A program made the position numbers and the translations under genes. 64,000 nucleotides of DNA from the NCBI GenBank assembly GCA_007996965.1, contig BIMP01000001.1, forward strand, positions 620,001-684,000. Reading direction: 5' to 3'. Shown piece by piece: positions 26,585-56,202 of the stretch. Below the pieces are notes generated by a model. The model was given only the letters and a program-made list of their open reading frames with translations. It did no database searches and was not told where the DNA came from. Each line of letters starts with the position of its first letter. Position 1 is the first letter of the stretch. Source of the DNA: a cyanobiont of Ornithocercus magnificus. Lineage in GTDB: Bacteria; Cyanobacteriota; Cyanobacteriia; PCC-6307; Cyanobiaceae.

Positions 26585-28555
26585 CTAGTTTTCTCCCGCA
26601 CATGGACTTCCAGACTCATGCCATTCGAGATTATTATGATCAAGTTTAAATAGAGTACTCAAGAACTCATCATACACAGTTTTAAGCCAATAGACATTTT
26701 CAATATAGTCAACCTTTCTCTCATGCCAATCTAACTGCGAGGAGTTATTTAGCGACTGAATTATCATAAAAGTAGGTAGTCTCATTAAACGCCTAACTAG
26801 TATGTCGCTAAACAAAGTTTTTGGGTTATCAAAGGACAAAATTTGGTCGAATTTTCTGGCCACGGTTAGGTTCCACGCAATTTCGTTATTCACAGTGGAT
26901 ATCAAAAGGTCACAGTATTTATAGAGACTAGTCTTAACTTTTGCTAGGCGGTGCTTGATTTCACTTGGTTCCAATGAGAATAATATGAGGCTTTTCCAAT
27001 TATCTATGAGTGGATAATTATTTTTAAACATATCTAGAGTCTTAACATCAAGCTCACATAGTGTAACAGGAGAATTGAGATATACTCCAAAAGGTGGTGA
27101 AAAGAAAGCAGTATCGTAAGCATTTAATGTGTTGGAAAAGCTATCACTTGCACTTAGGAGAGATGGGGTGGAGAAGACTGTTTTAGATGACCGACCTTGT
27201 GTAGGAATAGTAAATTCACGAGGGCTTAATCCTAGGGCACCATTTGCACGTGGATAGTCGCGTTTAGAAGTGCCAAAATCACACCCTAAACCAAGGATTT
27301 TAGAGAATCCTAGGTGGAGAAGAACCTCTAATCCTGCATTTACACTTTCTGGCCCGCTCTGTAGTAGCTTACCCTCAGACTCATTGTAAAAGAATGCCAG
27401 CGTGGATGAAAATGGGCGATGGAACCATACAGACCTAGCGAATAGTGAGTGCACACGAGGATCTAATGTCATAGATGCAAAAAGAGTAATCTTCCTTAGG
27501 TCATACCCTTCTTCAATTAGTTGAAGAGCATTGTAGAAAATGCTACTCTCACGCTCGAGCAGTACAACTGCGTCAGGGTATACCTGATTACGTACTAGTG
27601 CACCGACACTACTACCAGATGCAACAATTCTCACACTTTGGCGGTTATTGTAGAGCCATGGAATTGCCATATCTAGAGATGGACCACTAGCAGTAAGCAC
27701 AACTGGCCTGGACTGATTTCTTGGTGAGTAGGTTATAAACCTCCGATGTTGTTCTTGCAGTGATAGGAAAATAGCTTGTCGTAGTTGATTAATCTCATCT
27801 ACTTCTGATCCTAGAGAACTGATGACGTACTGCGTAAGCCCCTCTGGACTTCTTAACCATGACTCAAATGCTTGAAGGCAACTGTTACTGATTGGAGACC
27901 TAATAATTCTCATGCCGAATATTGTAGTTGCTTGGAGAGCTATTGTGGCAGTACAAAAATAATGCTTAAGTTTATCCAGATTTGCTTCTAATAGAAACTG
28001 GACCCCAACACTCCGCGATTTTGCGCTGTTTACCATGACGTGAAGATCACTTAAAAGTAGTCCAACTGCAAGGTCTCTGGGGTTTGACTCTATTATTATA
28101 ATGCGGTCAATATAGTTAGGTAGCAATTCAACCCTGATTGATTGCAGTACTGGAGCACCTAGAATTAACAATGTACGAGCTTGTTTAATAATACTGGTGC
28201 CAGCTTTATTCTGAATCTTAGTATGCAGTCCAGAGAGAATAGCAGACCTGCAGCTATTGTACGATTGCTTAAGAACACTTTGTGCTGATGGACGATAATC
28301 AAGATTATTAACCAATGTGGGGTACAAAAGCATTGGCCCGCTGCATAGGCCATACTGATATGAAGTAGTAATTAAATCTAAGTGTGGGAGCAAAAACTTA
28401 CCATCATAAAGTAATGATTTACTTCGGGAGTTAGAACTGTTCTCAATCGCTAGTCGATGATAAACATCACGAGCCTTTCTAAGAAAGCTAGTGTTGCCTT
28501 GACTCGATAAGAGGCGAAGGCCCCGAACAAGAGATCTGTAATTAAGCTGGTACAC
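26585..28555 (-). CDS. DUF115/Maf-like protein, probable protein glycosyltransferase (copy 1)
   Basis: A ~656-residue protein of the DUF115 (MAF_flag10) family. In flagellated bacteria, Maf proteins transfer pseudaminic or legionaminic acid to flagellin. The central domain starts at about residue 285 with VVLTASGPSLDMAIPWL, the nucleotide-sugar-binding glycine loop. It continues with VLLERESS, ASMTLDPRVHSLF, LLQSGPESVNAGLEVLLHLG and ILGLGCDFGTSKRDYPRANG. The N-terminal ~280 residues are a helical or Rossmann-like region of unknown role. The start is GTG at 28555 (or TTG one codon earlier), overlapping the stop of copy 2. No flagellar gene is visible, so the acceptor must be another protein, most simply the RTX-like product of the same operon. 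Confidence 0.8.
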   Translation of the reverse strand: MYQLNYRSLVRGLRLLSSQGNTSFLRKARDVYHRLAIENSSNSRSKSLLYDGKFLLPHLDLITTSYQYGLCSGPMLLYPTLVNNLDYRPSAQSVLKQSYNSCRSAILSGLHTKIQNKAGTSIIKQARTLLILGAPVLQSIRVELLPNYIDRIIIIESNPRDLAVGLLLSDLHVMVNSAKSRSVGVQFLLEANLDKLKHYFCTATIALQATTIFGMRIIRSPISNSCLQAFESWLRSPEGLTQYVISSLGSEVDEINQLRQAIFLSLQEQHRRFITYSPRNQSRPVVLTASGPSLDMAIPWLYNNRQSVRIVASGSSVGALVRNQVYPDAVVLLERESSIFYNALQLIEEGYDLRKITLFASMTLDPRVHSLFARSVWFHRPFSSTLAFFYNESEGKLLQSGPESVNAGLEVLLHLGFSKILGLGCDFGTSKRDYPRANGALGLSPREFTIPTQGRSSKTVFSTPSLLSASDSFSNTLNAYDTAFFSPPFGVYLNSPVTLCELDVKTLDMFKNNYPLIDNWKSLILFSLEPSEIKHRLAKVKTSLYKYCDLLISTVNNEIAWNLTVARKFDQILSFDNPKTLFSDILVRRLMRLPTFMIIQSLNNSSQLDWHERKVDYIENVYWLKTVYDEFLSTLFKLDHNNLEWHESGSPCAGEN

Positions 28556-30524
28556 CAATTCTCTTGCTCTTGTCGATCAAAAGATCAGATTCTATAGTGT
28601 CAAATAGCTCATATATCTCGCTCTCAACTTGGTTACAAATTTCAAGGAGGTACAATTGCACTTTATGGTAAAACTTTAGTGCAAGAGCTCCTGAGGGATC
28701 CTGAGTTAACAGAACATAGTTCTGACGTGTAATAGTGACGCTTAACTTTAGGAAAAGTGCCCTAACTAAGCGGCGTGCAACCTGCTGCCGTGATGGAACA
28801 TCAAGCTTCATAAGCTCAACTATCTTGCTTTGTAAATCATATGACCAGCTTGTGTTTAACATTAGCAACTCCCTTAGTGATGAGAACAGATCGCATACAT
28901 GCACACGTGATCTAGATGACTTCCAAAGGTTTCCTAGAGCTTCAGGCTGGAATCTCGGCTGTTTAAGCCACCAATCCCTCCAAGCATATTTATCAGTTAT
29001 GTGGTTATTGATTTTAGACATTAAACTTGACAGCACAATAGGTTCAGCCCCCTCAATCTTAACACCATCACTAGCATTGAATACTTTAAGCTTGGATATA
29101 GATAGACATCTCTCCATGGAAATTTTTCCATCCATCAAGAAACTATCACTATATACAACGTCTTGGAGGTTTCCTTCTGTTTTAATATCAAACTGACGCT
29201 TACTAGTGCCAACAGCATTTTTACTCCTAACGTATCGAAGTGAGGTTGTGCCTAGGTCAACACCAACTAGTACTACCTCTTCAGCCCTAAGACTAGCACA
29301 AAGTGCTACTCCAGTGTTTACTGTCTGTGGTCCTTCAAGATAAAGTACTTGTCTAGGGTTCGTAGAGAAAATTGCCAGAGGAGTTAAAGCAGGCCTAAAG
29401 TAAACCATGCTATCAGAAAATAAGCTATGAAGTCTGAAGTCACATGTCACGGATGCAAATAGGAAAGTCTCATCTGTACCAAACTCGTCCTTAACAGATA
29501 AATATTGTTCATATTCTATTGAGTTACGCTCTAACAAACAGAGAATATCCACCTTAATGCCAGCAGCTCTCAATGTTCGATAGTTACTTGCACACGCGAT
29601 AACAGAATAAGAGCTAGACAAGCATTTTACATAGTTTATATTAGCATCCAGACTCGGGCCGCTACCACATACTATGTACTTGCCGCCAATTTTGTTAAAA
29701 GGCAAGTGAAAAATGCGCGGTGATCTTCTTAGCGTAGCGCTAGCTGACCAAAGCATGTTGTATTCATCAAGGGTAAACCCCAGGTAGTTAAATAAATAAT
29801 CCAGCTTGCGACCACACAACTTCTCTCTATCATCAAGGTATGCTGGTAGCAGTGAACTACTTGAGTCTGGAACTACTATAAGTGCATGCTCACAGCCAAT
29901 AATATCAGAGTTCATGATAATTAAGCGCAATTGATCAATATCAGAATACGGGAGGATAGATATCCTCTGGTTAGGGTGTTCACACCTACTATTCCATAAC
30001 AGCTGCCAGTCAATCTCACTAAAACTTGTCTCTAGGTCAGCCCAGGAACGAATAGCAATGCAAAGATGGAATGGCTTAAAAGTGTTCACCATTTCGTTTA
30101 GAAGCCTCCCATTACCGCTGCCAAGGGCGATTATGGTTCGAGGCCTGATACTGTTGGTAGATGTTGATTGATTATCAGGGTCTGCACCAATCTTCTGCTC
30201 AATTTCTCTAAGTTTTAAAAGTCCCCAGACCAGATGTGGATCTAAATCTTCTGAGGGATTGATGTATTGTCTAATACCATGGTCAGGAGAAAAAGCCTTG
30301 ATTTTTTGTTTAAGGGCATCATACCCAGCCTGGGACAAGAATAATTGTGGTAGAACAAGTGCCTTGCTGCTAACCTGGGACCAACCCTTAATAGATTGGT
30401 CACCTGTAATACCTACAGGTGAATTGCTGTTTTCTTCAGGGGATACACGCTGAAGTGTGCCGGTGAGCTGCTTTTGAAGCAGAAAAGACTTCAAGAATAA
30501 CTTATTTTTTTCGAGTAAATCCAT
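28542..30524 (-). CDS. DUF115/Maf-like protein, probable protein glycosyltransferase (copy 2)
   Basis: A 660-residue paralogue of the downstream gene with the same architecture. The central DUF115 domain begins near residue 285 with YIVCGSGPSLDANINYV. It has LCLLERNSIEYEQYL, FASVTCDFRLHSLFSDS, LYLEGPQTVNTGVALCASL and VVLVGVDLGTTSLRYVRSKN, aligned block for block with copy 1. The N-terminal domain has TIIALGSGNGRLLNEMV. I use the ATG at 30524; a TTG nine codons upstream is also open. It follows the RTX-like gene by 39 bp and overlaps copy 1 by about 14 bp, so the three are one operon. Two diverged copies suggest two acceptor sites, two sugars or a heteromeric enzyme. Confidence 0.82.
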   Translation of the reverse strand: MDLLEKNKLFLKSFLLQKQLTGTLQRVSPEENSNSPVGITGDQSIKGWSQVSSKALVLPQLFLSQAGYDALKQKIKAFSPDHGIRQYINPSEDLDPHLVWGLLKLREIEQKIGADPDNQSTSTNSIRPRTIIALGSGNGRLLNEMVNTFKPFHLCIAIRSWADLETSFSEIDWQLLWNSRCEHPNQRISILPYSDIDQLRLIIMNSDIIGCEHALIVVPDSSSSLLPAYLDDREKLCGRKLDYLFNYLGFTLDEYNMLWSASATLRRSPRIFHLPFNKIGGKYIVCGSGPSLDANINYVKCLSSSYSVIACASNYRTLRAAGIKVDILCLLERNSIEYEQYLSVKDEFGTDETFLFASVTCDFRLHSLFSDSMVYFRPALTPLAIFSTNPRQVLYLEGPQTVNTGVALCASLRAEEVVLVGVDLGTTSLRYVRSKNAVGTSKRQFDIKTEGNLQDVVYSDSFLMDGKISMERCLSISKLKVFNASDGVKIEGAEPIVLSSLMSKINNHITDKYAWRDWWLKQPRFQPEALGNLWKSSRSRVHVCDLFSSLRELLMLNTSWSYDLQSKIVELMKLDVPSRQQVARRLVRALFLKLSVTITRQNYVLLTQDPSGALALKFYHKVQLYLLEICNQVESEIYELFDTIESDLLIDKSKRIGVPA

Positions 30525-30563
30525 GGGGGAAAATAAGTCGAGCCTACGCAAGGAAGACTGTAA

Positions 30564-32102
30564 TTAGACGAGAGTGATAATAATACCAGTGTCGTTACTA
30601 TTTGCAGTAACAGAGAAGCCGAAGTTGAGAGTTGTCACTGCAATATCTTGACTTAGCTTAGTAGTAGTCACTAGATCAGTGCCTCTAATATTAAATACTG
30701 CATACTTACTCCCGCCGCTAGCAATAGTGAAGTATGTGTCATTGCCATCACTATAAATGCCCATGCTTCCCTCAATATCTTCGAGTTCGGTTACAGAAGC
30801 AGAAGCTGTTGCATAGACATAGATTGTACCAGACGTGGAGTTAAAGTTAGAGTTAGAAACATCAAGAGCAGTACTGTCAGCAATAATTTTATCCCCGCTA
30901 ACTGCACCTTCGACAATAAAATTACTGTAGCCGCCATGATACCAGGGTCTACTTCCAGTTGCATTGAGAGCACCAGTAGACAGAAAGTTTGCTGTCGTAC
31001 CTCCATAAATTAAAGAGTCATTACCAGCCCCACCATTTAAGGTAGGTATACCAGTGAGTAAAGGTGAGCCAGTATGAGGATTAAAGTGTTTAATAATGTC
31101 ATCACCAGATCCACCGTTTACGCTGTTGAGAGTTTGACCATAGATGTGAATCACATCGTGGCCGTTACCACCAAATACTAAAGCGGAGCAACCAAACACT
31201 TTTATAGTATCAGCACCACCAGCTCCATAAATACTTGCATTGCCAAAGTCTTGAGCGGAGCCGCCAATGATATCAGCACCATCAGCACCACCTCCAAGAC
31301 CAGTACCAGCTGTGGTTACTCCAAATGCATCCCCATATATTTTGACACCACCGCCACGTGCAAACTTATCCTCATAGTAGTTAGTAGAGGGCTCGATAGT
31401 GATCGTATCACTAAGACCACCACCAGCAATAGAAGCTGCAATAAAAGAGGCAGTTCCAAGATGGATTGAGTCAGCGCCTTTGCCAGCACCAATATAGGTG
31501 TTAGTAACACTAGCTCCACCCTCAAAAGTGATTAGGTCTGCACCTAGACCTGCATTGATATTAACGTCAGCTAGGATTTGTTCCGCACCAATAGCGATTG
31601 TGTCTTTACCTTTAGCACCATAAATTTGGGAGTCGAATAGGGTAGTTGCGGGAGCGTGAATTGAGTCATCACCGCTACCCAGGCCAAAGAAAGAGTTAAT
31701 AACAGTACGGGTTGCAGTCCCAAGGTCGATTGTGTCATTGCCTCCTCCCCCAAAGATAGTTGAGCCTTTGACTAGACCTGTAGAACTTGGCGATCCAACT
31801 ATAATCGAGTCAGCACCATCACCAGCGTAAATCTGATTAGAGTAGCTAGCCCCATTTTTAGATGAGATAGTATCATCTCCAGCACCACTATCGATGGTAG
31901 CTACTTGAGAACCGCGAAAAAGTATGTTAATTGAGTCATTTCCTTGGCCAGCGCTAGCTGAGTCACTAGCCTGGCTAATCGTAATAGTGTCATCACCCTG
32001 AAAACCTACTATCAAAGCAGGTGATGGTTTCGTTCCCAGTACTGAACCAGGAGAGGAAAGAATGTCATTACCAGTTGTGCCAGTGATAGTTGTAGCTGTC
32101 AT
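30564..32102 (-). CDS. RTX-like Ca2+-binding repeat surface protein, putative type I secretion substrate
   Basis: A 512-residue protein made almost wholly of Gly/Asp beta-roll-like repeats, with cores such as GFQGDDTITI, AGQGNDSINI, SGAGDDTISS, AGDGADSIIV, GGGGNDTIDL, GAGGADTIKV and GGSGDDIIKH. Spacing is about 20-30 residues, longer than the nine of classical RTX arrays. There is no signal peptide. The last ~60 residues are free of repeats and end in hydrophobic GIIITLV, as expected for a C-terminal type I signal. It is rich in Ser and Thr, possible O-glycosylation sites. The frame is open to 32168, but ATG at 32102 (MTATTITGTTGND) fits best. It leads the operon with the two Maf-like genes and lies 8 kb from the type I exporter. 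Confidence 0.82.
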   Translation of the reverse strand: MTATTITGTTGNDILSSPGSVLGTKPSPALIVGFQGDDTITISQASDSASAGQGNDSINILFRGSQVATIDSGAGDDTISSKNGASYSNQIYAGDGADSIIVGSPSSTGLVKGSTIFGGGGNDTIDLGTATRTVINSFFGLGSGDDSIHAPATTLFDSQIYGAKGKDTIAIGAEQILADVNINAGLGADLITFEGGASVTNTYIGAGKGADSIHLGTASFIAASIAGGGLSDTITIEPSTNYYEDKFARGGGVKIYGDAFGVTTAGTGLGGGADGADIIGGSAQDFGNASIYGAGGADTIKVFGCSALVFGGNGHDVIHIYGQTLNSVNGGSGDDIIKHFNPHTGSPLLTGIPTLNGGAGNDSLIYGGTTANFLSTGALNATGSRPWYHGGYSNFIVEGAVSGDKIIADSTALDVSNSNFNSTSGTIYVYATASASVTELEDIEGSMGIYSDGNDTYFTIASGGSKYAVFNIRGTDLVTTTKLSQDIAVTTLNFGFSVTANSNDTGIIITLV

Positions 32103-32470
32103 GAGAGATAGAGCACGTATGGATACTATAACTTTTCTAGAAAGGAGTGAAGACATTCTGCAATCCATTACTTAGCTATCTGTATTGCTACCCTACAAAG
32201 GGCTAATATAACAAAAGTGGTTAACCGGGGAACTATATAGGTTATGAAATTCTAGATTGGTCAACTAATTTAGCTCTCGAGTTTCTGGCTAATCTTAAGT
32301 TCTGATCACCGTAATTTTGTTAGTCAATAAGATAGTCGTTACTAGTAGCATAGCCATAAGAGTAGTATTATTAGGTGTAGAAGTTGTCGATCGAGAACTT
32401 ATGCTGGTAAAATATCTCTAGGTTTGTGGCATGCTCACAGCTCCGGGATCATAGGCTGATACACCCCTTA
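32103..32470. other. Spacer upstream of the RTX-like gene
   Basis: About 370 AT-rich bases between the rfbB stop and the RTX-like start; the genes are all on the minus strand. I see no gene in it. It should hold the promoter of the RTX-Maf-Maf operon. A TTGACC-like hexamer (minus strand, near 32264-32259) and a TATAGT (32237-32232) are present but 21 bases apart, too far for a confident call. Confidence 0.4.
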
Positions 32471-45211: not shown

Positions 45212-46081
45212 CTAGGTGTATGTAAAGGGTAAGCTAGAACCTGAGATACTAGCCTTATCTGTATAACTTTTCCAGTTGAACAGCCTATTAGCAGATTTCC
45301 AAAAGATGGCTGACTGTTCCTCGATTGAAAAATTATTGCGGTCAAAAAACTCTAGAGCTGATTGCCTTGAATGATCAAGATCCATATAAGGGAAATCAGA
45401 TCCATAGAGAACACGTTGAGCCCCTATGCGCTTATAAGCAAATGCAAGGTCTTGTTCAATGGTTGAGCCTAAATAGTATTTGACTGAGAAAGACATATCT
45501 AGAAAAACATTAGAAGATGACTCAGCTAGCAGCATTGCCTCTATTGCTCTTGCACCACCACTATGGAGAAGTACTACAGGAACACCAGCTACCCTATCAA
45601 TAATGGCTGCTGCTAACTGGAGATTATTATAGTGATACATTCCTGTAGAACCATAACTAGTGTCAATAAAAATAGGCATGTTAAGACGTGATGCATCAAC
45701 TGCAATATTTACTGCTTTAGGGATATCTGAAAAAGATATTTTCTGCTGATAGCTATGAAATTTTATCGCATCAACTCCAGCTTTCTTCATAGACCTGATT
45801 TTATCTGGTGATGAGAGTAAGTCTAAGCTGGCTAGCAAGGTAAAGCGTGATAGGGGCATTCTTTGGCGGACATATGAGGTAAATTCAGCTGCATCTGACA
45901 CACTAAGTGCCTGATTAAACAGCATAAAGTTAGCTGCAGTGAGACACTTTGATAAATTGGAATGGTAACTCATGAAGCATCGCTTAAGGTCAGAGCCGAC
46001 CATAGTCAAATCCTCAAGCAGCATTTCAGGACTTGTCAAACTGCCGCAGGGCAAGTGGATGTTAACATCGAAGAGTGGCAT
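45212..46081 (-). CDS. Amidohydrolase-2-like TIM-barrel protein
   Basis: A 289-residue protein resembling the metal-dependent amidohydrolase-2 group. The N-terminus PLFDVNIHLPCG stands where the HxH motif is expected, but its first His is Asn (N-I-H), so metal binding may be altered. Inside are KKAGVDAIKFHSYQ, MPIFIDTSYGS, VPVVLLHSGGARAIEAMLLAE and the C-terminal RVLYGSDFPYMDLDH, the GSDxP motif with the metal-side Asp. It is the last minus-strand gene of the island and is convergent with lysC. Its reaction is unknown; it may be a decarboxylase or hydrolase acting on a keto-acid or sugar precursor. Confidence 0.7.
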   Translation of the reverse strand: MPLFDVNIHLPCGSLTSPEMLLEDLTMVGSDLKRCFMSYHSNLSKCLTAANFMLFNQALSVSDAAEFTSYVRQRMPLSRFTLLASLDLLSSPDKIRSMKKAGVDAIKFHSYQQKISFSDIPKAVNIAVDASRLNMPIFIDTSYGSTGMYHYNNLQLAAAIIDRVAGVPVVLLHSGGARAIEAMLLAESSSNVFLDMSFSVKYYLGSTIEQDLAFAYKRIGAQRVLYGSDFPYMDLDHSRQSALEFFDRNNFSIEEQSAIFWKSANRLFNWKSYTDKASISGSSLPFTYT

Positions 46082-46459
46082 CTCTGTTGGGGAAATAAGC
46101 TCTTTCTACAAGCCTAGAAAGGAATTCTATAGCTAGAAAGCCACTAAAGTCGTCAGCTTTAGCTTTATAGAAGCTTAAGGAAATTGAACCACAAAGATCT
46201 AAGGCACTGGCCAGCAAGGTACATTAGTCTTCCTACGCTTTTTAGCTTTAAAAATCTAGGTTAGTAGCAGTAAGTGCTATAATACTTGTTAATATCTTAA
46301 ATAGTAATTTGCCCAGAGAGCAAAGTGACTAAACTAGTGTGACTCTTTCTACTCTCAGTCAACTGCTGTATACTTTTACTATAGAGCTACTGCTTAGCTG
46401 CTTACATTCAAGATTACTAGGTGATAGAAAACAGCAGCTTTACTCAGCCAGACTTCTCA
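46082..46459. other. Gene-free spacer in the nonulosonate island
   Basis: About 380 AT-rich bases between the amidohydrolase start and the RraA-like stop. Stops are dense in all frames. I see no gene, RNA or repeat. It probably carries the amidohydrolase promoter. Confidence 0.45.
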
Positions 46460-47155
46460 CTACGAAATACTAAAAGACTGTAGGGATGCCTGAAGTTCTT
46501 GAGGGAGTAAGTCAACTTCTCTCAAGTATCGCTTTAAGCAAACCGTTTCATAAGTAGACATCTTAAGCTTATCAGTGCAAAAGTACCGTATATCTTCTTG
46601 AAGTTTGATAAAATTTATGCGGTCCAAAAGGTCTTGGTTTTGGAACTCTGATCTAATTAGAGCACAACCAGAATCATCAGCAACTAATATAGCTCCATCG
46701 AACTTTTTATTTTGGGACTTGATATATGAATCAGTACTTGAGGAGCATTCAACTCTCTCATTAGAGCAACCTAGTGGTGTATAACCAGTACACCAGATTG
46801 GATAATCTTCTTTACGTAGCCGATGTACATCTCGTACGAGGCCATTCACGATAACTCCAGTGGATTTCTGATGAATTAAAAGCCACCTTGCTACAAGATC
46901 ACCTAAGATAGCCTGGTCTCCACAATTGATAGTATCTACATAGACTATGTGGCCAGGAGGAATCTGCTGCGCCTGCTCGTGAAGGGACCAGTTAGAGTTT
47001 CCCCAAGTACATATATAGAAGGCTTCAGCTGCTACAAAATGACCAGAATTAAGTGAGCTGATTCCAGACATAACACCAGTCTTACCTAAGGCGTCGGCAA
47101 CTTCAGCGGTAGAAACATGCTTTGTTAGAATTGTTTCCAAGATTAAGTTAAGCAT
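46460..47155 (-). CDS. RraA-like (HMG/CHA aldolase family) protein
   Basis: A 231-residue member of the RraA/HMG-aldolase-like fold. STAEVADALGKTGVM near the N-terminus matches the family's first helix. GDQAILGDLVARWLLIHQKS followed by GVIVNGLVRDVHRL gives the G...RD motif that binds the metal and a pyruvate-like carboxylate in the aldolases. The C-terminal ~70 residues, rich in Lys and Cys, are not typical. I start at the ATG at 47155, which overlaps the ATP-grasp stop by 8 bp. True RraA binds RNase E, while the aldolases split 4-hydroxy-4-carboxy acids. Beside NeuB, which uses phosphoenolpyruvate, a role in a keto-acid or keto-sugar step is possible but unproven. Confidence 0.68.
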   Translation of the reverse strand: MLNLILETILTKHVSTAEVADALGKTGVMSGISSLNSGHFVAAEAFYICTWGNSNWSLHEQAQQIPPGHIVYVDTINCGDQAILGDLVARWLLIHQKSTGVIVNGLVRDVHRLRKEDYPIWCTGYTPLGCSNERVECSSSTDSYIKSQNKKFDGAILVADDSGCALIRSEFQNQDLLDRINFIKLQEDIRYFCTDKLKMSTYETVCLKRYLREVDLLPQELQASLQSFSIS

Positions 47156-48323
47156 AGTCAAGCTGAACTTTTGAAATCAATGAGTCAGCCTCATAGATAC
47201 TGCCTCTAAAGATGATAAAGCCGTGTCGATCAGCATCTGAAGTTATTTTATTAATTTGATCACCAGGTTTAACCATCAACCGGGAGTAGATACAGCGTGG
47301 GTCACATGTAAGGGTATCCCAATTGTAAATAGCAGCAACTCTCCCTGGTTCAAAATTAAGAAAGCGAAGAGCAACAGGATTTCTCTCTGGAATATGGTAG
47401 TAATTAAACCGGTAACCAAGGCAATCTGAAATATACTGATCTAACAGATTAATGCCAGATGCTAAGGGTACTACTACCTCACTCGTCAGGACACCACCAC
47501 CTCTGTTTGCTGTTTCAACGAGATAAATCTTGCCTTTTTGAACTATGTATTCTGAATGCGTCATCCCGTAGTTGAAGTTAAATACAGAGCTTACTTTATT
47601 ATTAACTTGTACTATCTTATTATGGAGAGAGCTATCCAGGTCTCCTGGATAAGCAATGCCGAGTGCGACCTGAATTTCCTCACCACTCATGACCTTACTT
47701 CCACATGCAATCGATTGATAGCCTACGCTCGAAAATGCATATCCATCTATGGTAACTTGCTGGCCTGCGATAAATGTTTCGGCTAGTACAAGTCGTGAGT
47801 GGCTATTTGCCAATGCTGAAAAGAAGGCGGTTGATAGCTCATCAGGTTTGCCAACTTTGGTGACTCCAATGCTACCCCTATTATCAATTGGTTTAAGAAT
47901 AACTGGGTATCCAAAACCTTCAGCAAAAGCCAAAGCATCACTGGGTGACAGGCAGAGTTTGTAGTCTGGTATTAAGACTCCAGAGCTGCTTGCAAGCTTT
48001 CTCTGCAGGAATTTGTTGTTAGTCAGTTGTGCTGCTTCTAATGTTGGACCAGGGAGACCCAACTTGGTAGATATGGCAGCTTGGACAAGAAGACTATAAT
48101 CACATTGGTCTGAGATAACTGCATCTGGTTGTAACTGCTCAGCATAAGCAAGAATGGTGCTTAAGTCCCTGTTGTTTGTTATGCAAATGTCTTTAAAGAG
48201 CTTACAGAAACTTAGGCCTTTATCGGGGCAAATAGCATACAGATTGCAGTTCCATGTTGTGTGCAGACGATTGATCAAAGGGGCTTGTTCCCAGCCTGGA
48301 CTGATGATAAGTACTCGCTTCAT
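47148..48323 (-). CDS. ATP-grasp ligase
   Basis: A 391-residue ATP-grasp enzyme, which joins a carboxylate to an amine or thiol through an acyl phosphate. The N-terminal domain opens with KRVLIISPGWEQAPLINRL. The grasp domain has NNKFLQRKLASSSGVLIPDY, FGYPVILKPIDNRGSIGVTKV, LVLAETFIAGQQVTIDGYAF and the metal-binding VETANRGGG. It resembles the carbamoyl-phosphate-synthase-like and PurK-like ligases found in polysaccharide clusters. It is coupled to neuB (ATGA overlap) and to the RraA-like gene (8-bp overlap). It may attach an amino acid or other acyl group to the sugar; that is inference from context. Confidence 0.8.
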   Translation of the reverse strand: MKRVLIISPGWEQAPLINRLHTTWNCNLYAICPDKGLSFCKLFKDICITNNRDLSTILAYAEQLQPDAVISDQCDYSLLVQAAISTKLGLPGPTLEAAQLTNNKFLQRKLASSSGVLIPDYKLCLSPSDALAFAEGFGYPVILKPIDNRGSIGVTKVGKPDELSTAFFSALANSHSRLVLAETFIAGQQVTIDGYAFSSVGYQSIACGSKVMSGEEIQVALGIAYPGDLDSSLHNKIVQVNNKVSSVFNFNYGMTHSEYIVQKGKIYLVETANRGGGVLTSEVVVPLASGINLLDQYISDCLGYRFNYYHIPERNPVALRFLNFEPGRVAAIYNWDTLTCDPRCIYSRLMVKPGDQINKITSDADRHGFIIFRGSIYEADSLISKVQLDYA

Positions 48324-49336
48324 ACCTTACCTTTTAAGTCAGACCAATGAAGAAGAGATCCTGACTTGACTGTGTGGCTAAGCACAAAATGGCTCAAGAC
48401 TAACGACTCTTGGTTAACGTCGATACCTTTACGGTTACGAAGATAATCGAAGTCAGTAGCGGAAAGTTCTTCGCCCTCTCCTTTATCACAGCGTAGGACT
48501 AGACGGTAGCGGATCGTCTCACGAAAGCTGGCCTCAGATGCCTCCAAATCAAGGCGATCTTTATTACCACAAGCTACTTCAACTATTCGTATATTTTTCA
48601 CCATATAGGTGAACTGAGATGGTGTTAGGGAAAATGGAGCATCAGGAGAGTCTAGTATGCTATCTAAACGGAAGTGCTTCTCAAGCATATCAGCGCCAAG
48701 CGCAATAGCTGCTAATGCAACAGTGATGCCATCTGTGTGGTCAGAAAAACCAACAGGACACTTAAACATGTCACGGAAAGTCTTCATTCGCTTTAGATGT
48801 ACGATATTTGCAGGCGCTGGATACACGCTATTGCAATGAAAGATGGCATAATTTCTGTTCCCTTCACCTTGAAATATCTTGATGACCGAGGATATTTGCT
48901 CATAGCTAGCAATCCCGCTAGAGAAGAAAGTTGGCTTTCCGGTTGATGCAACCTTATGCACTAATTGAGGAAAAGTCCCTGCTTGAGCAGATGCTATCTT
49001 AAAGAATGGGACACCTATATCATCCATTATCCTAACTGCATCTAGATATGTTGGGGATGATGAGAAGAGCAGACCCCGGCAGTTCGCATACTCCAACAGC
49101 TCTAGATGCCAATCTTCAGGAAAATCTATTTGGGAGTGTAGTTCCCTGATTTCCTTGCTCGGCATATGCCATAACTTCCTGAGGTTAAGGCTCTGAAACT
49201 TGATAGCATCTACCCCAGTCTCAGCTGCGGCATCGATATGTTCCTTCGCACATTGGATGTCACCCTTATGGTTTGACCCCACTTCTGCAATGATGAAAGT
49301 TTGTCCTTGTCCAACTTTTTTTCCGGCTATTTCCAT
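48320..49336 (-). CDS. NeuB/PseI-family nonulosonic acid synthase
   Basis: It condenses phosphoenolpyruvate with a six-carbon 2,4-diacetamido or N-acetyl sugar to give a nine-carbon sialic-acid-like sugar. The TIM barrel has FIIAEVGSNHKGDIQCAKEHI, GVDAIKFQS, LLFSSSPTYLDAVRIMDDIGV, FFKIASAQ, FHCNSVYPAP, VGFSDHTDGITVALAAIALGA and LEKHFRLD. The last ~60 residues form the SAF (antifreeze-like) domain that closes the active site of a dimer partner. It has 338 residues, normal. It starts with ATG at 49336. The nearby pseB, pseC and pseF suggest pseudaminic acid or a close relative (PseI role), rather than N-acetylneuraminate. Confidence 0.92.
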   Translation of the reverse strand: MEIAGKKVGQGQTFIIAEVGSNHKGDIQCAKEHIDAAAETGVDAIKFQSLNLRKLWHMPSKEIRELHSQIDFPEDWHLELLEYANCRGLLFSSSPTYLDAVRIMDDIGVPFFKIASAQAGTFPQLVHKVASTGKPTFFSSGIASYEQISSVIKIFQGEGNRNYAIFHCNSVYPAPANIVHLKRMKTFRDMFKCPVGFSDHTDGITVALAAIALGADMLEKHFRLDSILDSPDAPFSLTPSQFTYMVKNIRIVEVACGNKDRLDLEASEASFRETIRYRLVLRCDKGEGEELSATDFDYLRNRKGIDVNQESLVLSHFVLSHTVKSGSLLHWSDLKGKV

Positions 49337-49800: not shown

Positions 49801-50391
49801 TTATTGCCGCCACCACCAAAAAACCACTGATTGAGATTGCATCAAAGCACCTAGTGTAAAGCCATAGTGAGCAAAGGTAAGGTTGCTCGCTATATTTTTT
49901 CTGAAGACCTCGGCGAAAACCAACATATCTTTACCCCAACATTCTTGCATAAGTTGTATACCTTGATGTAGTAAGGTTGAGGCTAGACCAAAACCACGGA
50001 CTGCTGTGTCTAGAGAGAGATCAACACTTACATTGTCAGTAACGGGGTTTCGATCGAAGCGAATTTGACCGAGAGGATGGCTAGTTACGTCTACAGCAAC
50101 TAGAATCAACCTGTTTGGGTTTATAAGGCTGTTTTGGAACCATTGATTATGGTCTTCAGAAGTAATTGGTTTTGGAGAGAAGCTATTAGAACGTACCTCA
50201 GAGTCATTAGCCCAATGCAGAAGCAGAGGCTCATCAGAGTCGGCAGCCCTACGCAAATAAAGCTTTCTTCCCTTGTTGAGAGGAGTGGTGGGGCCATACT
50301 GGGTTCCCCAACTATCAACTAAGCTCCGGCTTTTACAAGATAGTAAGAGTTTACTTTCGGGGATAGTATACAAGGTGGGCCTTGTGGACAC
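49801..50391 (-). CDS. PseH-like N-acetyltransferase, probable remnant of a PseG-PseH fusion
   Basis: A 196-residue GNAT protein. The acetyltransferase domain (about residues 43-196) has LYLRRAADSDEPLLLHWAND, LGQIRFDRN, VDLSLDTAVRGFGLASTLL and FAEVFRKNIASNLTFAHYGF. These match the N-acetyltransferase that acetylates the 4-amine in pseudaminic acid synthesis. In several bacteria it is fused behind PseG. Here the first ~40 residues include RSLVDSWGTQYG, which looks like the last strand and LVDGxGxxR end of a PseG. The upstream frame closes at 50403, so the PseG body is gone. It starts at GTG 50391, with no clear ribosome-binding site. The acetyltransferase may still work. Confidence 0.75.
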   Translation of the reverse strand: MSTRPTLYTIPESKLLLSCKSRSLVDSWGTQYGPTTPLNKGRKLYLRRAADSDEPLLLHWANDSEVRSNSFSPKPITSEDHNQWFQNSLINPNRLILVAVDVTSHPLGQIRFDRNPVTDNVSVDLSLDTAVRGFGLASTLLHQGIQLMQECWGKDMLVFAEVFRKNIASNLTFAHYGFTLGALMQSQSVVFWWWRQ

Positions 50392-50530
50392 TAGCCAAGC
50401 TTATATTCCCTAGGGCATATGTTAATTGGGTCTAATAAAAAGCTGAGTAGCTAGCCTTTGGTCAATGCCAAAAGCAACTGTTGACGAATCTAGATTGTCC
50501 AAGTTGACATCACCATCATAGAAACACGAT

Positions 50531-51223
50531 TCATATTAGCTCTCTTAATAGGCAGAAAGCTTCAGCAACAGGTACACCAATCTGAGCACCACGCCAGCGG
50601 GCCAGATGTTCCACGGCCTGGGCTGACCTGGCATGAGGCCACGAACGCATCTCACTAATGTAGGCATCTAGTGCCTGTCGCTTGCGCTCCCATTGGTTAG
50701 TAATATCTACAAATAAGTTAGGGTGAAATGCTACTCCAGATCCTGGAGGTTGCCATTCTGTACTGCTAGATACTTCGAAACTCAATAAGCGCTTCACTGT
50801 ATTTCCTGGTGTTGGTCGGCAGGCAGTGACAACTGCCTCATGCAACCGCCGGTGGTCGATGTTAACATCACCAGCATGATGAACATAGATCACATTTGGG
50901 TGGCACTTTTGGACCCAGACTTCAACTAGCCTGGCTAGGTCTAGACGACTTATAGAATCGAGTCGATTATCAGGGAGATTAAGAAGCTTAACACTTGTTG
51001 TCCCAAGTATTGCCCCTGCTGTTTTAGCAGCTTGAGCCAAGATTGATATCTGCTCTTTGCCTCGGCGACGACCTTGATAATACTCTTGTCTAGATGTGGC
51101 GCCTTCAGCAACAATTAGCACTTGCACATAATCGCCAGCATCAGAATGTCGGGCTATGGTACCACCACAGCCTAGTACTTCGTCATCGGGATGGGCGGCA
51201 ACAACAAGAACTGAATCAGCCAT
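50531..51223 (-). CDS. PIG-L/LmbE-family deacetylase
   Basis: A zinc-dependent N-deacetylase of 230 residues, the family that deacetylates GlcNAc conjugates. The metal motif VVAAHPDDEVLGCGGTIARH is complete, and VIYVHHAGDVNIDHRRLHEA supplies the third metal ligand and the downstream His. The ATG overlaps the pseF stop by 8 bp, so it is in the pseB-pseC-pseF operon. Textbook pseudaminic acid synthesis has no deacetylase; here it could remove an acetyl group so that another acyl group can be put on, or act on the UDP-sugar. That is inference. Confidence 0.88.
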   Translation of the reverse strand: MADSVLVVAAHPDDEVLGCGGTIARHSDAGDYVQVLIVAEGATSRQEYYQGRRRGKEQISILAQAAKTAGAILGTTSVKLLNLPDNRLDSISRLDLARLVEVWVQKCHPNVIYVHHAGDVNIDHRRLHEAVVTACRPTPGNTVKRLLSFEVSSSTEWQPPGSGVAFHPNLFVDITNQWERKRQALDAYISEMRSWPHARSAQAVEHLARWRGAQIGVPVAEAFCLLRELI

Positions 51224-51920
51224 GAATTAGATATTGATCTAAAGCTGCATGCATTAGTTCTGCACGGTACCAGTCTTCCTCTGTGTCAATATCTTGTACA
51301 CGCCACCGCGGAAGTAATAAAGGGCGCGAGCCATCGAAAAAGTTGAGTGGGCTTCTCCAACGCTCTGGCCTAGCCCAATAGAATTGGCCAGCATCATGAA
51401 ATGCTTCTTCGAGGTCTTGACTACGCTTGGTAATAGCTTTAGGGTCAACAGAGACAGCATACCCATTAGTGTCAAGCCGTATAGCTCGCTCAATAGGAAA
51501 TGGGAAACTAGTTGCGGTGAATAGCAAGGTGTTAGTGTTAAACTGCTCTAGTTGCCAGGCGGCCTGAAGCAAATCATTTGGCTGTACAAACGGCGCTGTA
51601 GCATACAGACAGCATACGGCAGTCAATAACTCTAGGTGTAGAAGTGCCCAGTCGATTGCATGAGCCACTACATCTACTATATTAGCGTAGTCATCAGCAA
51701 GTCGACCAGGCCTAAGAAATGGGACACTAGCCCCCCAAGATCGCGCGACCGTAGCAATTTCAATGTCATCAGTGCTGACAATTATAGCGTCAAAGCACCC
51801 TGCTTTCATAGCAGCCTCAATTGACCATGCAATAACTGGTTTTCCTCTAAATGGGCGGATGTTCTTGTGTGGAATGCGTTTGCTACCTCCACGAGCTGGA
51901 ATTACACAGAGTTTTGTCAT
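51216..51920 (-). CDS. pseF: CMP-pseudaminic acid cytidylyltransferase-like protein
   Basis: It activates the nonulosonic acid with CTP to a CMP-sugar, the donor for transferases such as Maf. The N-terminal CTP-binding loop is LCVIPARGGSKRIPHKNIRPFRGKP, followed by AIIVSTDDIEIATVARSWGA and LADDYANIVDVVAHAI. The C-terminal part has DAGQFYWARPERW and the DIDTEEDW sequence of this family. It has 234 residues, the usual length for PseF/NeuA. It lies 7 bp after pseC. The neighbours favour PseF over NeuA. Confidence 0.9.
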   Translation of the reverse strand: MTKLCVIPARGGSKRIPHKNIRPFRGKPVIAWSIEAAMKAGCFDAIIVSTDDIEIATVARSWGASVPFLRPGRLADDYANIVDVVAHAIDWALLHLELLTAVCCLYATAPFVQPNDLLQAAWQLEQFNTNTLLFTATSFPFPIERAIRLDTNGYAVSVDPKAITKRSQDLEEAFHDAGQFYWARPERWRSPLNFFDGSRPLLLPRWRVQDIDTEEDWYRAELMHAALDQYLIHG

Positions 51921-51927
51921 GCTATCT

Positions 51928-53103
51928 TTATACTAACATGGCTAGAATAGCAGTAAGAGTATCTACCACATGCTGTTGATCTTGGCTACTTAGCCTAGGA
52001 AATAATGGCAGGCTAATAGCGCTGGTAGCGTAGTGTTCGGCTTTTGGAAAATCACCCTGCTGAAACCCAAGCTGTCGGTAATAAGGTTGTAGATGTACAG
52101 GAGAGTAGTGAAGCTGCACGCCTATGCCTGCTAGCCGTAGCCTCTCAAACACATGCCGATGTACTTGCGCGCTTTGGTTACGAAGACAAATCACTGCTAA
52201 ATGTGCAGCCGAATAAACACCAGAAGGAATATCAAGAAGGCTAACCGGCAAACCTACCGTCAATAATCGGTAATGCTCTAACAGCTGGTTTCTTTTCTCA
52301 ACAGTAGTTTTCAGACGTTGTAATTGGCTGCAGCCTAAAGCAGCCTGAAAGTCAGTCATACGATAATTAAATCCGAGCGTTTGTTGTTCATAACTCCAAG
52401 GTCCTGCAGCAGGAAACTGAAACTCGCTAGTATCCTTAGTGACACCATGATTCCGTAGCTGTTGCATTTGTCTAGCCAAGTGCTGGCTATTGGTGGTAGC
52501 GACACCACCTTCGCCAGTTGTGATGATCTTTACGGCATGAAAGCTAAATACACAAATATCACTGTAGCGACAATTACCGATTAGTTCCCCCTGATAGCTG
52601 CCGCCAATAGCATGACTAGCATCCTCGATTATGCAAAATCCGTAGAGATTAGCTAAGGCTGCAATAGCTCTCATGTCGCAACTAGTACCAGCAAGGTGGA
52701 CAGGTATGATGGCCTTAGGCAGCGTGCCTCTAACTTCTGCTTCTTGAAGCTTACGTACCAAGCTAGGTATGTTAATCAGTCCTGTCTCCAAATTTATGTC
52801 AACAAAGTCAATATCAGCGCCACAATAACGAGCGCAGTTTGCTGAGGCGACAAACGTGATCGGGGATGTCCAGACATGATCTCCTAAAGTCAGACCAACT
52901 GAACGGCAAGCCAGATGTAATGCACTAGTAGCACTATTAACAGCAACTGCATGTTGTGCACCTACCTTCTCAGCAATGTTATTTTCGAAAGCTGGGACAG
53001 CAGGTCCTTGAGTTAGAAATGGGCTACGAAGAACATCGACGACGGCATCGATATCTGCCTCTGTAACTGTCTGATGTCCGTAGGGTAGGAAAGGCTGGTT
53101 CAC
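51928..53103 (-). CDS. pseC: UDP-4-amino-4,6-dideoxy-N-acetyl-beta-L-altrosamine transaminase
   Basis: A PLP aminotransferase of the DegT/DnrJ/EryC1 family that aminates C4 of the PseB product. Features are FLPYGHQTVTEADIDAVVDVL, the start typical of PseC, then VAVNSATSALHLACRSVGL, HVWTSPITFVASANCARYCGA, IEDASHAIGGSYQGE and the PLP-lysine site VFSFHAVKIITTGEGGVATT. NHGVTKDTSEF and GFNYRMTDFQAALGCSQLQRL follow. It has 391 residues, normal. It starts with GTG at 53103, which overlaps the pseB stop (GTGA). Confidence 0.93.
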   Translation of the reverse strand: MNQPFLPYGHQTVTEADIDAVVDVLRSPFLTQGPAVPAFENNIAEKVGAQHAVAVNSATSALHLACRSVGLTLGDHVWTSPITFVASANCARYCGADIDFVDINLETGLINIPSLVRKLQEAEVRGTLPKAIIPVHLAGTSCDMRAIAALANLYGFCIIEDASHAIGGSYQGELIGNCRYSDICVFSFHAVKIITTGEGGVATTNSQHLARQMQQLRNHGVTKDTSEFQFPAAGPWSYEQQTLGFNYRMTDFQAALGCSQLQRLKTTVEKRNQLLEHYRLLTVGLPVSLLDIPSGVYSAAHLAVICLRNQSAQVHRHVFERLRLAGIGVQLHYSPVHLQPYYRQLGFQQGDFPKAEHYATSAISLPLFPRLSSQDQQHVVDTLTAILAMLV

Positions 53104-54116
53104 TGAGGCTGAAAATATGGGTCAATATGTTCTCGGACTAGAGCACGCAACTGATCAACAGTTAAAAAATCAGGATTGCTACCAGAGTTGTAGGCAAAAC
53201 CAGCAGGGACTGGTTTTGCTGTCAAGCCTATTGATGCATAACGTTCTTGAAAAGAGCTATTACTTGGGAGAATAGCAAAGTAGTTACCCAGATCAACGGT
53301 TGAAAAGCTATCAGATATAGTAATCATCTCCTCATGTATTTTCTCGCCAGGACGGATGCCTACGATTGGCTTTTTGCAACTAGGACAGATTGCCTCAGCA
53401 ACATCGGTAATCCGGTAGCTAGGGATCTTTGGCACGAACAACTCTCCACCTAGTGCATGGCACAGTACCCAAAGTACCATTTCTACGCCCTCGCGCAAGG
53501 AAATATTAAAACGAGTCATAGCTGGGTTAGTGATTGGTAGGGTGCCAAACTTTGCTTTTTCAAGAAAAAATGGTATTACCGAGCCACGTGAGCCCATCAC
53601 ATTACCATAACGAACCACTGAGTAACGTAGATCTCGAGCTCCTTTAGCATTATTAGCTGCTATAAATATTTTGTCTGAGCACAGTTTAGTGGCGCCGTAC
53701 AAATTGATTGGCGCTGCAGCTTTATCTGTGCTTAAAGCTACAACACGTCGTACACTAGAATCTAGGCATGCTTGGACAACATTCTCTGCACCAAGTACAT
53801 TAGTCTTGATAAACTCTATCGGATTATGCTCAGCAGCTGGTACTTGTTTTAATGCGGCTGCATGAACTACTGTGTCTATATGTTCGAGAGCTCGACGTAA
53901 GCGGTCCTGATCACGCACGTCACCAATAAAGAATCTCAGCTGTGGAAAATCAGATGCAGGGAAAAGCTGCTGTATCTCCCACTGTTTTAATTCATCTCGA
54001 CTATAGATTACAATTTGCCGGACCGCTGGATAAGATTTTAAGACATGGGAGATAAAAGCTTTGCCAAAACTTCCAGTTCCTCCCGTAATTAGCAGGCCGC
54101 TTGATTCATTAAACAT
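53100..54116 (-). CDS. pseB: UDP-N-acetylglucosamine 4,6-dehydratase (inverting)
   Basis: PseB removes water from UDP-GlcNAc and inverts C5, the first step of pseudaminic acid synthesis. The NADP-binding loop is [46 protein letters not shown] is the family signature, and the catalytic [21 protein letters not shown] carries the Asp, Lys and Tyr. [17 protein letters not shown] follows. I use the ATG at 54116 (MFNESSG), which overlaps the uvrB stop by 8 bp; the frame extends 18 codons further inside uvrB. The island thus begins flush with uvrB and may be driven by the uvrB promoter. Confidence 0.93.
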
Positions 54117-56202
54117 CCTGGTGTGTGCCTTGAGCACATGATGCAGTAGTTTTTGCCATTTCAGGTTCACCAGTAAGCTTTTGCTGCAATTGCTTGACCT
54201 GATCGCGCAGTTTAGCTGCTTCTTCGAAATTAAGACTCTTTGCTGCTTCTCTCATTCTAACTTCCAGCTGCCTAATTAATTCTGGTAGACTGTCTAAGTC
54301 TACTTCTATATTATCGCTTCCGTCTGAAATCTTTTCTGCCCCATCATTAATCTGCAGAGCGCTTTCACTTAGCATGCCTTCTTTGAGGCAGCGCGATAGC
54401 TCTATAAGATCCAGGATTGAGTTATTCGATTTTTTACTTACTGCTTTAGGAATAATACCATGCCTTTCATTGTAAGCTTGCTGTATACTACGACGACGGT
54501 CAGTTTCTTCAATTGCTTTTGCTATAGACTTTGTGAGATTATCTGCATAAAGTAATGCAACTCCCTCCACATGGCGTGCCGCACGACCAATTGTCTGTAT
54601 TAACGACCGCTCTGCTCTCAAGAAACCCTCTTTGTCAGCATCAAGGATTATCACTAGTGAGACTTCTGGTAAGTCTAAGCCTTCTCGCAACAGGTTTACC
54701 CCTACCAGTACATCATACTTCCCTATCTGAAGATCCTGAATAATCTCTATTCGCTCAATTGAATGAACTTCTGAATGTAAGTAGCGTACCCGAACACCAT
54801 TCTCTGCCAAGTAGTCAGTCAGGTCCTCTGCCATTCTCTTGGTCAGTGTTGTTATTAGTACCCGCTGCCGCTTCACAGTACGCATGTTGATCTCACTTAG
54901 CAAATCATCTACTTGACCTGCAGTTGGTCGCACCTCAACCACTGGATCAAGAACCCCTGTTGGCCGGATTATCTGTTCAGTTATTCTGCCACCACTTATC
55001 TTTAGCTCCCAATCACCTGGTGTTGCACTTACAAATATTGTGCTTTCAGTTTTGTCCCAAAACTCTTCACTCTTTAAAGGCCGATTGTCTGCTGCACTTG
55101 GTAGTCGAAAGCCATGGTCGATCAATACTTTCTTGCGAGCTTGGTCACCGTTGTACATAGCCTTTAGCTGTGGACAAGTCACATGACTCTCGTCTACAAT
55201 TAATAACCAGTCTTTAGGAAAGTAATCAATCAGACACTCAGGCGGTGATCCTTCAGCACGGTCTGCTAGATGTCGAGCATAATTCTCGACGCCGTTGCAG
55301 TAGCCAACCTGCTGTAGCATTTCCAGGTCATATGTTGTGCGTTGTCCTAGGCGCTGTGCCTCCAAAAGCTTGCCTTCACTGCTAAGAAGTTTTAGCTGGT
55401 CTTCCAGTTCAGCATGAATTGCTTTCATTGCGTTATCTAAACGGTCTTTTGGTGTTACAAAGTGCTTAGCTGGGTAGATATTTATAGCTTCTAAGCTTCG
55501 CAAGGTCTTCCCAGTAGTTGGATTTATATAGCAGATCGACTCCACTTCATCGCCAAAAAATCCGATCCGCACTAACGTGTCTTCATAGGCTGGTCCAATT
55601 TCGATTACATCACCTTTGACACGGAAGCTACCACGAGTGACCTCAATATCGTTTCGACAGTATTGATTATTCACTAGTCTCCGAAGTGAGTCGCGCACAT
55701 CGAGAACTTTACCTACCTTAAATTTAACTGCTGCCTTAAGATATTCACTAGGAATTCCAAGGCCATAGATGCAGCTAATTGAAGCCACAACGATTACATC
55801 CTGACGCTCGAATAGGGAGCGTGTAGCTGAGTGACGCAACATATCAATATCTTCATTAACTGAAGCTGTCTTAGCAATGTATGTATCGCTCACTGGTACA
55901 TAAGCTTCAGGCTGGTAGTAATCGTAGTAGGAAATAAAGTATTCAACAGCATTGTGCGGGAAGAAACCCCGCAGCTCATTGCATAGTTGTGCTGCTAGCG
56001 TTTTGTTGTGAGCTAGTACTAAGGTTGGGCGACCTATCTTCGCAATGACATTAGCGACTGTAAACGTTTTGCCTGTGCCTGTTGCGCCGAGCAAGGTCTG
56101 ATAGCGCTGACCTTGCTGGATGCCATCTACCAGTTGCGCAATTGCCGCTGGTTGGTCTCCCTGAGGTGTATATGGTGCTCTCAAGATGTAGTTATTCATC
56201 AT
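54109..56202 (-). CDS. uvrB: Excinuclease ABC subunit B
   Basis: UvrB is the damage-verifying helicase-like subunit of nucleotide excision repair. It has [18 protein letters not shown], Walker [18 protein letters not shown], and the beta-hairpin region [50 protein letters not shown] (motif II), [21 protein letters not shown] and QTIGRAARH follow. The C-terminal UVR domain that binds UvrA/UvrC is present ([27 protein letters not shown]). It has 697 residues, a short cyanobacterial tail included. It is upstream of and overlapping pseB. Confidence 0.97.

What the first reader, a model, noticed from the sequence alone, without database searches (positions are those of the whole stretch)
49801..50403. 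PseH-like gene looks like the tail of a PseG-PseH fusion whose PseG half is missing
The first ~40 residues include RSLVDSWGTQYG, similar to the C-terminal end of PseG, directly before a GNAT domain of the type fused to PseG in some bacteria. The frame is closed by a stop at 50403, and only ~130 bp separate it from the PIG-L gene, so the ~300-residue hydrolase domain is gone. No other PseG is seen in the window, so the UDP-removal step is unassigned.
Basis: partly seen in the sequence, partly recalled or inferred. Interest (0 to 1): 0.55.

Follow-up and report, generated by a model that had tools for sequence, protein, structure and literature searches.

The report
Orphaned acetyltransferase half of PseG-PseH fusion
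A sugar-making gene in this picocyanobacterium-like genome is the surviving second half of a two-enzyme gene: the first half, which strips UDP off the sugar, has been lost, so the surface-sugar pathway next to it lacks a recognisable step.

Summary
The 196-aa gene at 49801-50391(-) is a GNAT acetyltransferase preceded by LVDSWGTQY, which aligns without gaps, at the same distance from the GNAT start, to the last residues of PseG in PseG-PseH fusions of the same family. Of 22 non-self matches among 400 family genomes, 11 are fusions (531-771 aa), including the ten best. Nine of these 11 have PIG-L directly upstream, so about 0.8 kb of PseG is missing here between PIG-L and GNAT. No PseG was found in the assembly (95.6% complete). 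The 139-bp gap holds no PseG remnant better than chance. The GNAT part keeps 36 of 40 conserved columns; the PseG tail keeps 3 of 7. The usual PseI is also absent: the only NeuB-family enzyme in the genome is below the PseI and NnaB cut-offs. Absence of PseG beside a genuine PseF is not unique: 16 of 23 PseF-positive family genomes lack a strong PseG match (E<=1e-20), and five of six tested carry genuine PseI. So: an old truncation leaving a probably working stand-alone PseH-like enzyme in a partly rebuilt nonulosonic-acid cluster. Modest interest; the recurrent PseG absence is the better lead.

The parts
49801..50391 (-). 196-aa ORF, stand-alone PseH-like GNAT with a short PseG-derived tail (GTG start; other possible starts TTG 50373 and TTG 50256)
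50296..50322 (-). codons 24-32, LVDSWGTQY: remnant of the C-terminal end of PseG
   Evidence: 20 of 100,000 permutations for the 21-residue segment that it opens; 8 of 50,000 for these nine residues
49801..50262 (-). GNAT domain (residues 44-196), conserved
   Evidence: Acetyltransf_3 E=4e-10; one search keeps 36 of 40 columns conserved at 90%; model confident here
50392..50530 (-). 139-bp gap where the rest of PseG lies in relatives; no significant PseG remnant
   Evidence: 304 of 400 shuffles score as high
50531..51223 (-). PIG-L deacetylase, the gene directly upstream of PseG-PseH in 9 of 11 fusion relatives
51216..51920 (-). PseF, CMP-pseudaminic acid cytidylyltransferase
   Evidence: TIGR03584 288.4 bits, cut-off 205.7
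51928..53103 (-). PseC aminotransferase
   Evidence: TIGR03588 530.9 bits, cut-off 423.5
53100..54170 (-). PseB dehydratase
   Evidence: TIGR03589 493.6 bits, cut-off 407.75
48320..49336 (-). NeuB-family synthase below the cut-offs of PseI (222.2 bits, cut-off 340.25) and NnaB (241.6, cut-off 399.65); only NeuB-family gene in the genome
47148..48323 (-). ATP-grasp ligase overlapping the NeuB-family gene
46460..47161 (-). RraA-like aldolase/decarboxylase family protein, overlapping the ATP-grasp gene; 2 of 300 family genomes match, this one included
45212..46081 (-). Amidohydro_2 family protein

Best explanation
The gene descends from a PseG-PseH fusion like those in related genomes of its family. 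A deletion between PIG-L and the GNAT part removed nearly all of PseG; a few C-terminal PseG residues stayed as an unstructured leader. The GNAT half is probably still translated, from GTG 50391 or an internal TTG, and probably still N-acetylates the 4-amino group of the PseC product (UDP-4-amino-4,6-dideoxy-AltNAc). Shown: descent, loss of PseG from the assembly, conservation of the GNAT part. Inferred: expression, activity and substrate. The usual PseI is gone as well, and a divergent NeuB-family/ATP-grasp/RraA/amidohydrolase block stands in its place, so canonical CMP-pseudaminic acid is probably not made by the known route. Because PseF and two MAF-like genes are intact, a nonulosonic-acid-like sugar may still be made by a rebuilt route whose UDP-removing enzyme is not identified.
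For: Ten best non-self matches in 400 family genomes are PseG-PseH fusions. Tree: window GNAT lies with 11 family fusion GNATs, split from 10 stand-alone ones plus one other-family fusion by a branch of support 97/99. Ungapped tail match. PIG-L upstream in 9 of 11 fusion relatives. No PseG in own genome, and the single Epimerase_2 enzyme there is WecB, not hydrolysing NeuC. Tail columns kept 3 of 7 against GNAT 36 of 40, Fisher p 0.011; 0.006 and 0.013 at the two other thresholds tried. AlphaFold model: residues 1-23 and 33-41 under pLDDT 50, GNAT confident; fold matches GNATs. Window NeuB is not PseI by score while 6 of 6 tested syntenic relatives are.
Against: TIGR03585 (PseH) score is far below its cut-off, 30.4 against 93.1, although four fused relatives score only 31-36 too. 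Only about nine tail residues are recognisable, and two near-invariant ones (G, R) are changed. No remnant in the gap. GNAT identity to relatives (mean 47%) is below relatives among themselves (mean 56%), so mild relaxation is not excluded. The assembly has 16 contigs and is 95.6% complete, so a PseG on a missing piece is possible.
Confidence: 0.7

Rival explanations
1. Decaying relic: same descent, but the Pse cluster is no longer used, PseG and PseI went first, and the GNAT ORF is open only because the loss is recent.
For: PseG, PseI and the formyltransferase genes of the relatives are missing; GNAT, PseC and PIG-L are a little more diverged from relatives than relatives among themselves.
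Against: PseB, PseC, PseF and PIG-L are full length; GNAT keeps 36 of 40 conserved columns while the tail keeps 3 of 7, which points to selection on GNAT after the loss; MAF-like genes are intact in the window.
Confidence: 0.2
2. Assembly artefact: the PseG part was dropped when the assembly was made at 50391-50530.
For: Draft genome of 16 contigs; reads not available.
Against: No N in the window; about 200 bp at the junction match neither PseG nor PIG-L, which a collapsed join would not create; the tail itself carries substitutions at conserved sites; PseI is replaced too.
Confidence: 0.06
3. The GNAT never was part of a fusion here; it is a stand-alone nonulosonic-acid acetyltransferase with a chance N-terminus.
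For: Only a short tail match; stand-alone GNATs exist in the family.
Against: Tree and hit order place it with fusion GNATs, not with stand-alone ones; tail match at fixed offset; PIG-L synteny.
Confidence: 0.04

Closest known systems
   Same: GNAT half 44-48% identical in the seven best matches, same tail position, same upstream PIG-L
   Different: The PseG hydrolase domain (about 300 residues, its conserved columns listed) is absent here
Stand-alone PseH (TIGR03585), the Campylobacter/Helicobacter type
   Same: GNAT fold, position beside PseB and PseC, weak model match over residues 51-185
   Different: Far below the family cut-off; derived by truncation of a fusion, not an original stand-alone gene
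Pse-like gene sets with canonical steps missing: Shewanella oneidensis (PMC3765264, passages, abstract and outline seen) and Geobacillus without PseH (PMC5109656, passages seen)
   Same: Incomplete set of canonical Pse genes; in Shewanella a nonulosonic acid was nevertheless found likely by mass spectrometry
   Different: No truncated fusion reported in the passages seen; other gene sets

Membership tests
PseG-PseH fusion | GNAT domain of fusion type | tested here: met
PseG-PseH fusion | PseG hydrolase domain in the same reading frame | tested here: not met
   none
PseG-PseH fusion | PseG C-terminal end before the GNAT domain | tested here: met
   for about nine residues
PseH (TIGR03585) | score over curated cut-off | tested here: not met
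   30.4 against 93.1; four fused relatives 31-36
PseH (TIGR03585) | GNAT fold | tested here: met
PseH (TIGR03585) | acetylation of the PseC product | not testable with these tools
   needs an enzyme assay
Canonical pseudaminic acid pathway | PseB, PseC, PseF over cut-off | tested here: met
Canonical pseudaminic acid pathway | PseG present | tested here: not met
Canonical pseudaminic acid pathway | PseI present | tested here: not met
   sole NeuB-family gene below the cut-offs of PseI and NnaB

The most novel reading that the evidence does not exclude
Many genomes of this picocyanobacterial-type family run a pseudaminic-acid-like pathway without PseG: an unrecognised enzyme removes UDP (or the route avoids free sugar), and this genome shows the transition, with the PseG half of a fusion cut away while the PseH half, PseF and MAF-like genes are kept and PseI is exchanged for a divergent NeuB with an ATP-grasp/RraA/amidohydrolase block.
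Probability: 0.25. Interest if true: 0.6.

Novelty: new variant of a known kind. Interest (0 to 1): 0.38.

Why it matters
If the GNAT half is active alone, the truncated gene is a natural separation of a two-step enzyme and shows that this PseH does not need its PseG. More broadly, 16 of 23 family genomes with a genuine PseF have no strong PseG match, and five of six tested ones hold genuine PseI, so the UDP-removing step in nonulosonic-acid synthesis of this family may be done by an unknown enzyme; this genome is one place to look for it.

Tried and rejected
PseG remnant in the 139-bp gap: an apparent GDVNLDNL...DQRLA match in the read-through frame looked good by eye, but 304 of 400 dinucleotide shuffles score as high (gap alone) and 62 of 400 for gap plus 23 codons on the best score; 141 and 144 of 400 on the mean score; rejected. 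Formyltransferase remnants in the window: no match better than E=0.31. NeuC as substitute UDP remover: the only Epimerase_2 protein is WecB, 433.5 bits against cut-off 210.15. A gene shared by the PseG-less clusters and absent from PseG-bearing ones that could replace PseG: none convincing among ORFs of 17 loci without a strong PseG, 13 loci from the PseG side and the window; a 313-aa gene beside PseI in G343 has relatives on both sides. Scans of genome contigs with the GNAT and with the NeuB-family protein gave no relatives.

Limits: searches used thresholds of 1e-20 and 1e-40, so divergent PseG are missed; two PseF-positive genomes counted as PseG-less, G006 and G232, carry PseG-like ORFs of 59.6 and 65.6 bits, below cut-off, in the fetched clusters, leaving 14 of 23 without any found. 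Those 14 were checked whole-genome only at 1e-20, apart from G000 and G026 (1e-3). PseI was tested in six of the PseG-less loci: five pass, G203 does not. The tree used 10 of the 11 stand-alone GNATs printed (L045 left out).

Full report
What is there. On the minus strand the gene at 49801-50391 (196 aa, GTG start) stands between a PIG-L deacetylase (50531-51223) and a NeuB-family gene (48320-49336), in a run PseB, PseC, PseF, PIG-L, GNAT, NeuB-family, ATP-grasp, RraA-like, amidohydrolase. Pfam sees only a GNAT domain, residues 44-179, E=4e-10. NCBIfam PseH matches weakly, 30.4 bits against a cut-off of 93.1; four fused relatives score 31-36, so the model covers this branch poorly.

Descent from a fusion. 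In 400 genomes of the same family 23 match the protein, itself included. The ten best non-self matches are open frames of 531-771 aa, and an eleventh (G063, 751 aa) matches more weakly; all 11 carry a TIGR03590 PseG match in the same open frame. The remaining 11 matches are GNATs without PseG in their frame, 25-34% identical. In the alignment the window sequence LVDSWGTQY falls on LTDGWGA.R of the fusions, the last PseG residues, with no gap up to the GNAT start. At this one offset 20 of 100,000 permutations of the 21-residue segment reach the observed mean score against 10 relatives; one of 11 was left out because it has one more residue. Of 47,727 21-mers in the six-frame translation of the window, 8 reach it, the segment itself being in that set. 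A tree of 23 GNATs splits the window and the 11 family fusions from 10 stand-alone GNATs and one fusion of another family by a branch of support 97/99; inside the fusion group the place of the window is open.

Synteny. Of 11 fusion relatives 9 have PIG-L directly upstream (tblastn E<=1e-5), with about 1.0-1.5 kb from its end to the GNAT match; the other two (G320, G093) show no PIG-L match in the fetched stretch. In the window the same distance is about 0.27 kb. Two relatives (G301, G004) also have uvrB beside the cluster, as here.

The lost part. The own genome (1.88 Mb, 16 contigs, 95.57% complete) has no TIGR03590 match and none at E<=10 with an alignment of 11 family PseG domains. The tool warns that an empty answer for a private query proves nothing by itself; the TIGR03590 model does ring in 20 of 400 family genomes. 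The 139-bp gap shows no PseG remnant above chance. The junction therefore holds about 200 bp of unrelated or decayed sequence, which speaks for an old loss and against a collapsed assembly join; the window has no N.

Is the GNAT alive? Of columns at least 90% conserved in the relatives (at least 7 rows), the window keeps 3 of 7 in the PseG tail and 36 of 40 in the GNAT domain (Fisher p 0.011; 0.006 and 0.013 at 80% and 70%). GNAT identity to 9 relatives is on average 47.0%, relatives among themselves 55.9%; the neighbours show smaller or similar gaps (PseB 74.8/77.1, PseC 63.1/70.8, PseF 60.2/62.3, PIG-L 68.2/74.2; 9, 9, 4 and 11 relatives). The predicted model is confident over the GNAT domain and of low confidence at 1-23 and 33-41, and its best PDB matches are GNAT acetyltransferases. 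A TTG at 50256, at the GNAT start and behind a purine-rich stretch, is a possible second start; which start is used is unknown.

What else changed. In relatives the synthase gene after the fusion is PseI, in several of them past formyltransferase-like ORFs (that label for the ORFs rests on resemblance; a similar ORF of G375 was confirmed by Pfam): 6 of 6 tested synthases score 458-475 bits against a cut-off of 340.25. The window gene in that role scores 222.2 for PseI and 241.6 for NnaB, below both cut-offs, is at most 40% identical to any listed family homologue, and stays outside the PseI clade on a long branch. It is the only PF03102 gene in the genome. No homologue of these formyltransferase-like ORFs is found in the window. 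The RraA-like neighbour matches in 2 of 300 family genomes, this one included. So the second half of the pathway has been exchanged or lost, not PseG alone.

Signs that a product is still used. Two tandem proteins at 26585-30551 match PF01973 (MptE-like; that this is the domain of MAF flagellin-modifying proteins is recalled) and weakly the PseD model. Homologues of both, and of the 534-aa protein next to them, lie in the fetched 20 kb around the Pse cluster of G142, and of both MAF-like ones in G287. This fits transfer of a nonulosonic acid to a protein, but is indirect.

PseG-less clusters are common here. PseF passes its cut-off in 23 of 375 family genomes. Seven of these have a PseG match at E<=1e-20: G004, G142, G213, G215, G287, G310, G314. 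Sixteen do not, ten of them at least 90% complete. Two of the sixteen (G006, G232) have a divergent PseG-like ORF by the cluster. In five of six tested PseG-less loci PseI passes its cut-off (G343, G375, G151, G333, G061); the sixth, G203, has an atypical NeuB, and G203, G170, G378 and G107 form one clade of such NeuB. No obvious PseG substitute was found in these neighbourhoods. The weak point is the 1e-20 threshold.

Literature. Passages of PMC3765264 state that Shewanella oneidensis lacks clear PseH, PseG, PseI and PseF orthologues yet has a likely nonulosonic acid on flagellin; PMC7371886 (passages) reports PseH as one domain of a two-function protein in a Vibrio cluster; PMC5109656 (passages) gives the six-step pathway and clusters without PseH; PMC7591256 (passages) lists the six enzymes and redundancy or promiscuity of the acetyl step in Caulobacter. 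Searches for PseG-PseH fusions, cyanobacterial nonulosonic acids, Synechococcus with pseudaminic acid, missing PseG and NeuB with ATP-grasp listed no paper whose title or listed abstract start describes this truncation; I read passages of four papers only.

Verdict. The finding is right and well supported as evolutionary history. As biology it is a modest case of fusion-gene truncation, made more interesting by the replaced PseI and by the frequency of PseG-less clusters in this family.

Noticed in passing
window 26585-28558, 28542-30551, 30564-32168 (-): Two tandem MAF-like (PF01973) proteins and a 534-aa protein with weak matches to RTX-type and calcium-repeat models; homologues of all three lie near the Pse cluster of G142 (L074). 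Possible nonulosonic-acid transferases and acceptor.
   Followed up: partly
L070 (G222) and L078 (G063): Fused ORFs of 771 and 751 aa that add a further, formyltransferase-like part after PseG-PseH, apparently a triple fusion; the last label rests on resemblance to separate neighbouring ORFs of relatives, not on a family search of these two.
   Followed up: no
L119 to L134 (PseF-positive family genomes): Most PseF-positive genomes of the family have no strong PseG match; five of six tested loci have genuine PseI.
   Followed up: partly
L119:3737-4675 (-) in G343: 313-aa protein beside PseI with no Pfam or NCBIfam match; relatives in G170, G142 and G323.
   Followed up: partly
window 45212-49336 (-): NeuB-family, ATP-grasp, RraA-like and amidohydrolase block, first three overlapping, of unknown product; RraA-like gene very rare in the family.
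   Followed up: partly
L064 and L066 (G325:C16:33213-34147): PseG match split over two open frames, which suggests a frameshifted PseG in that draft genome.
   Followed up: no
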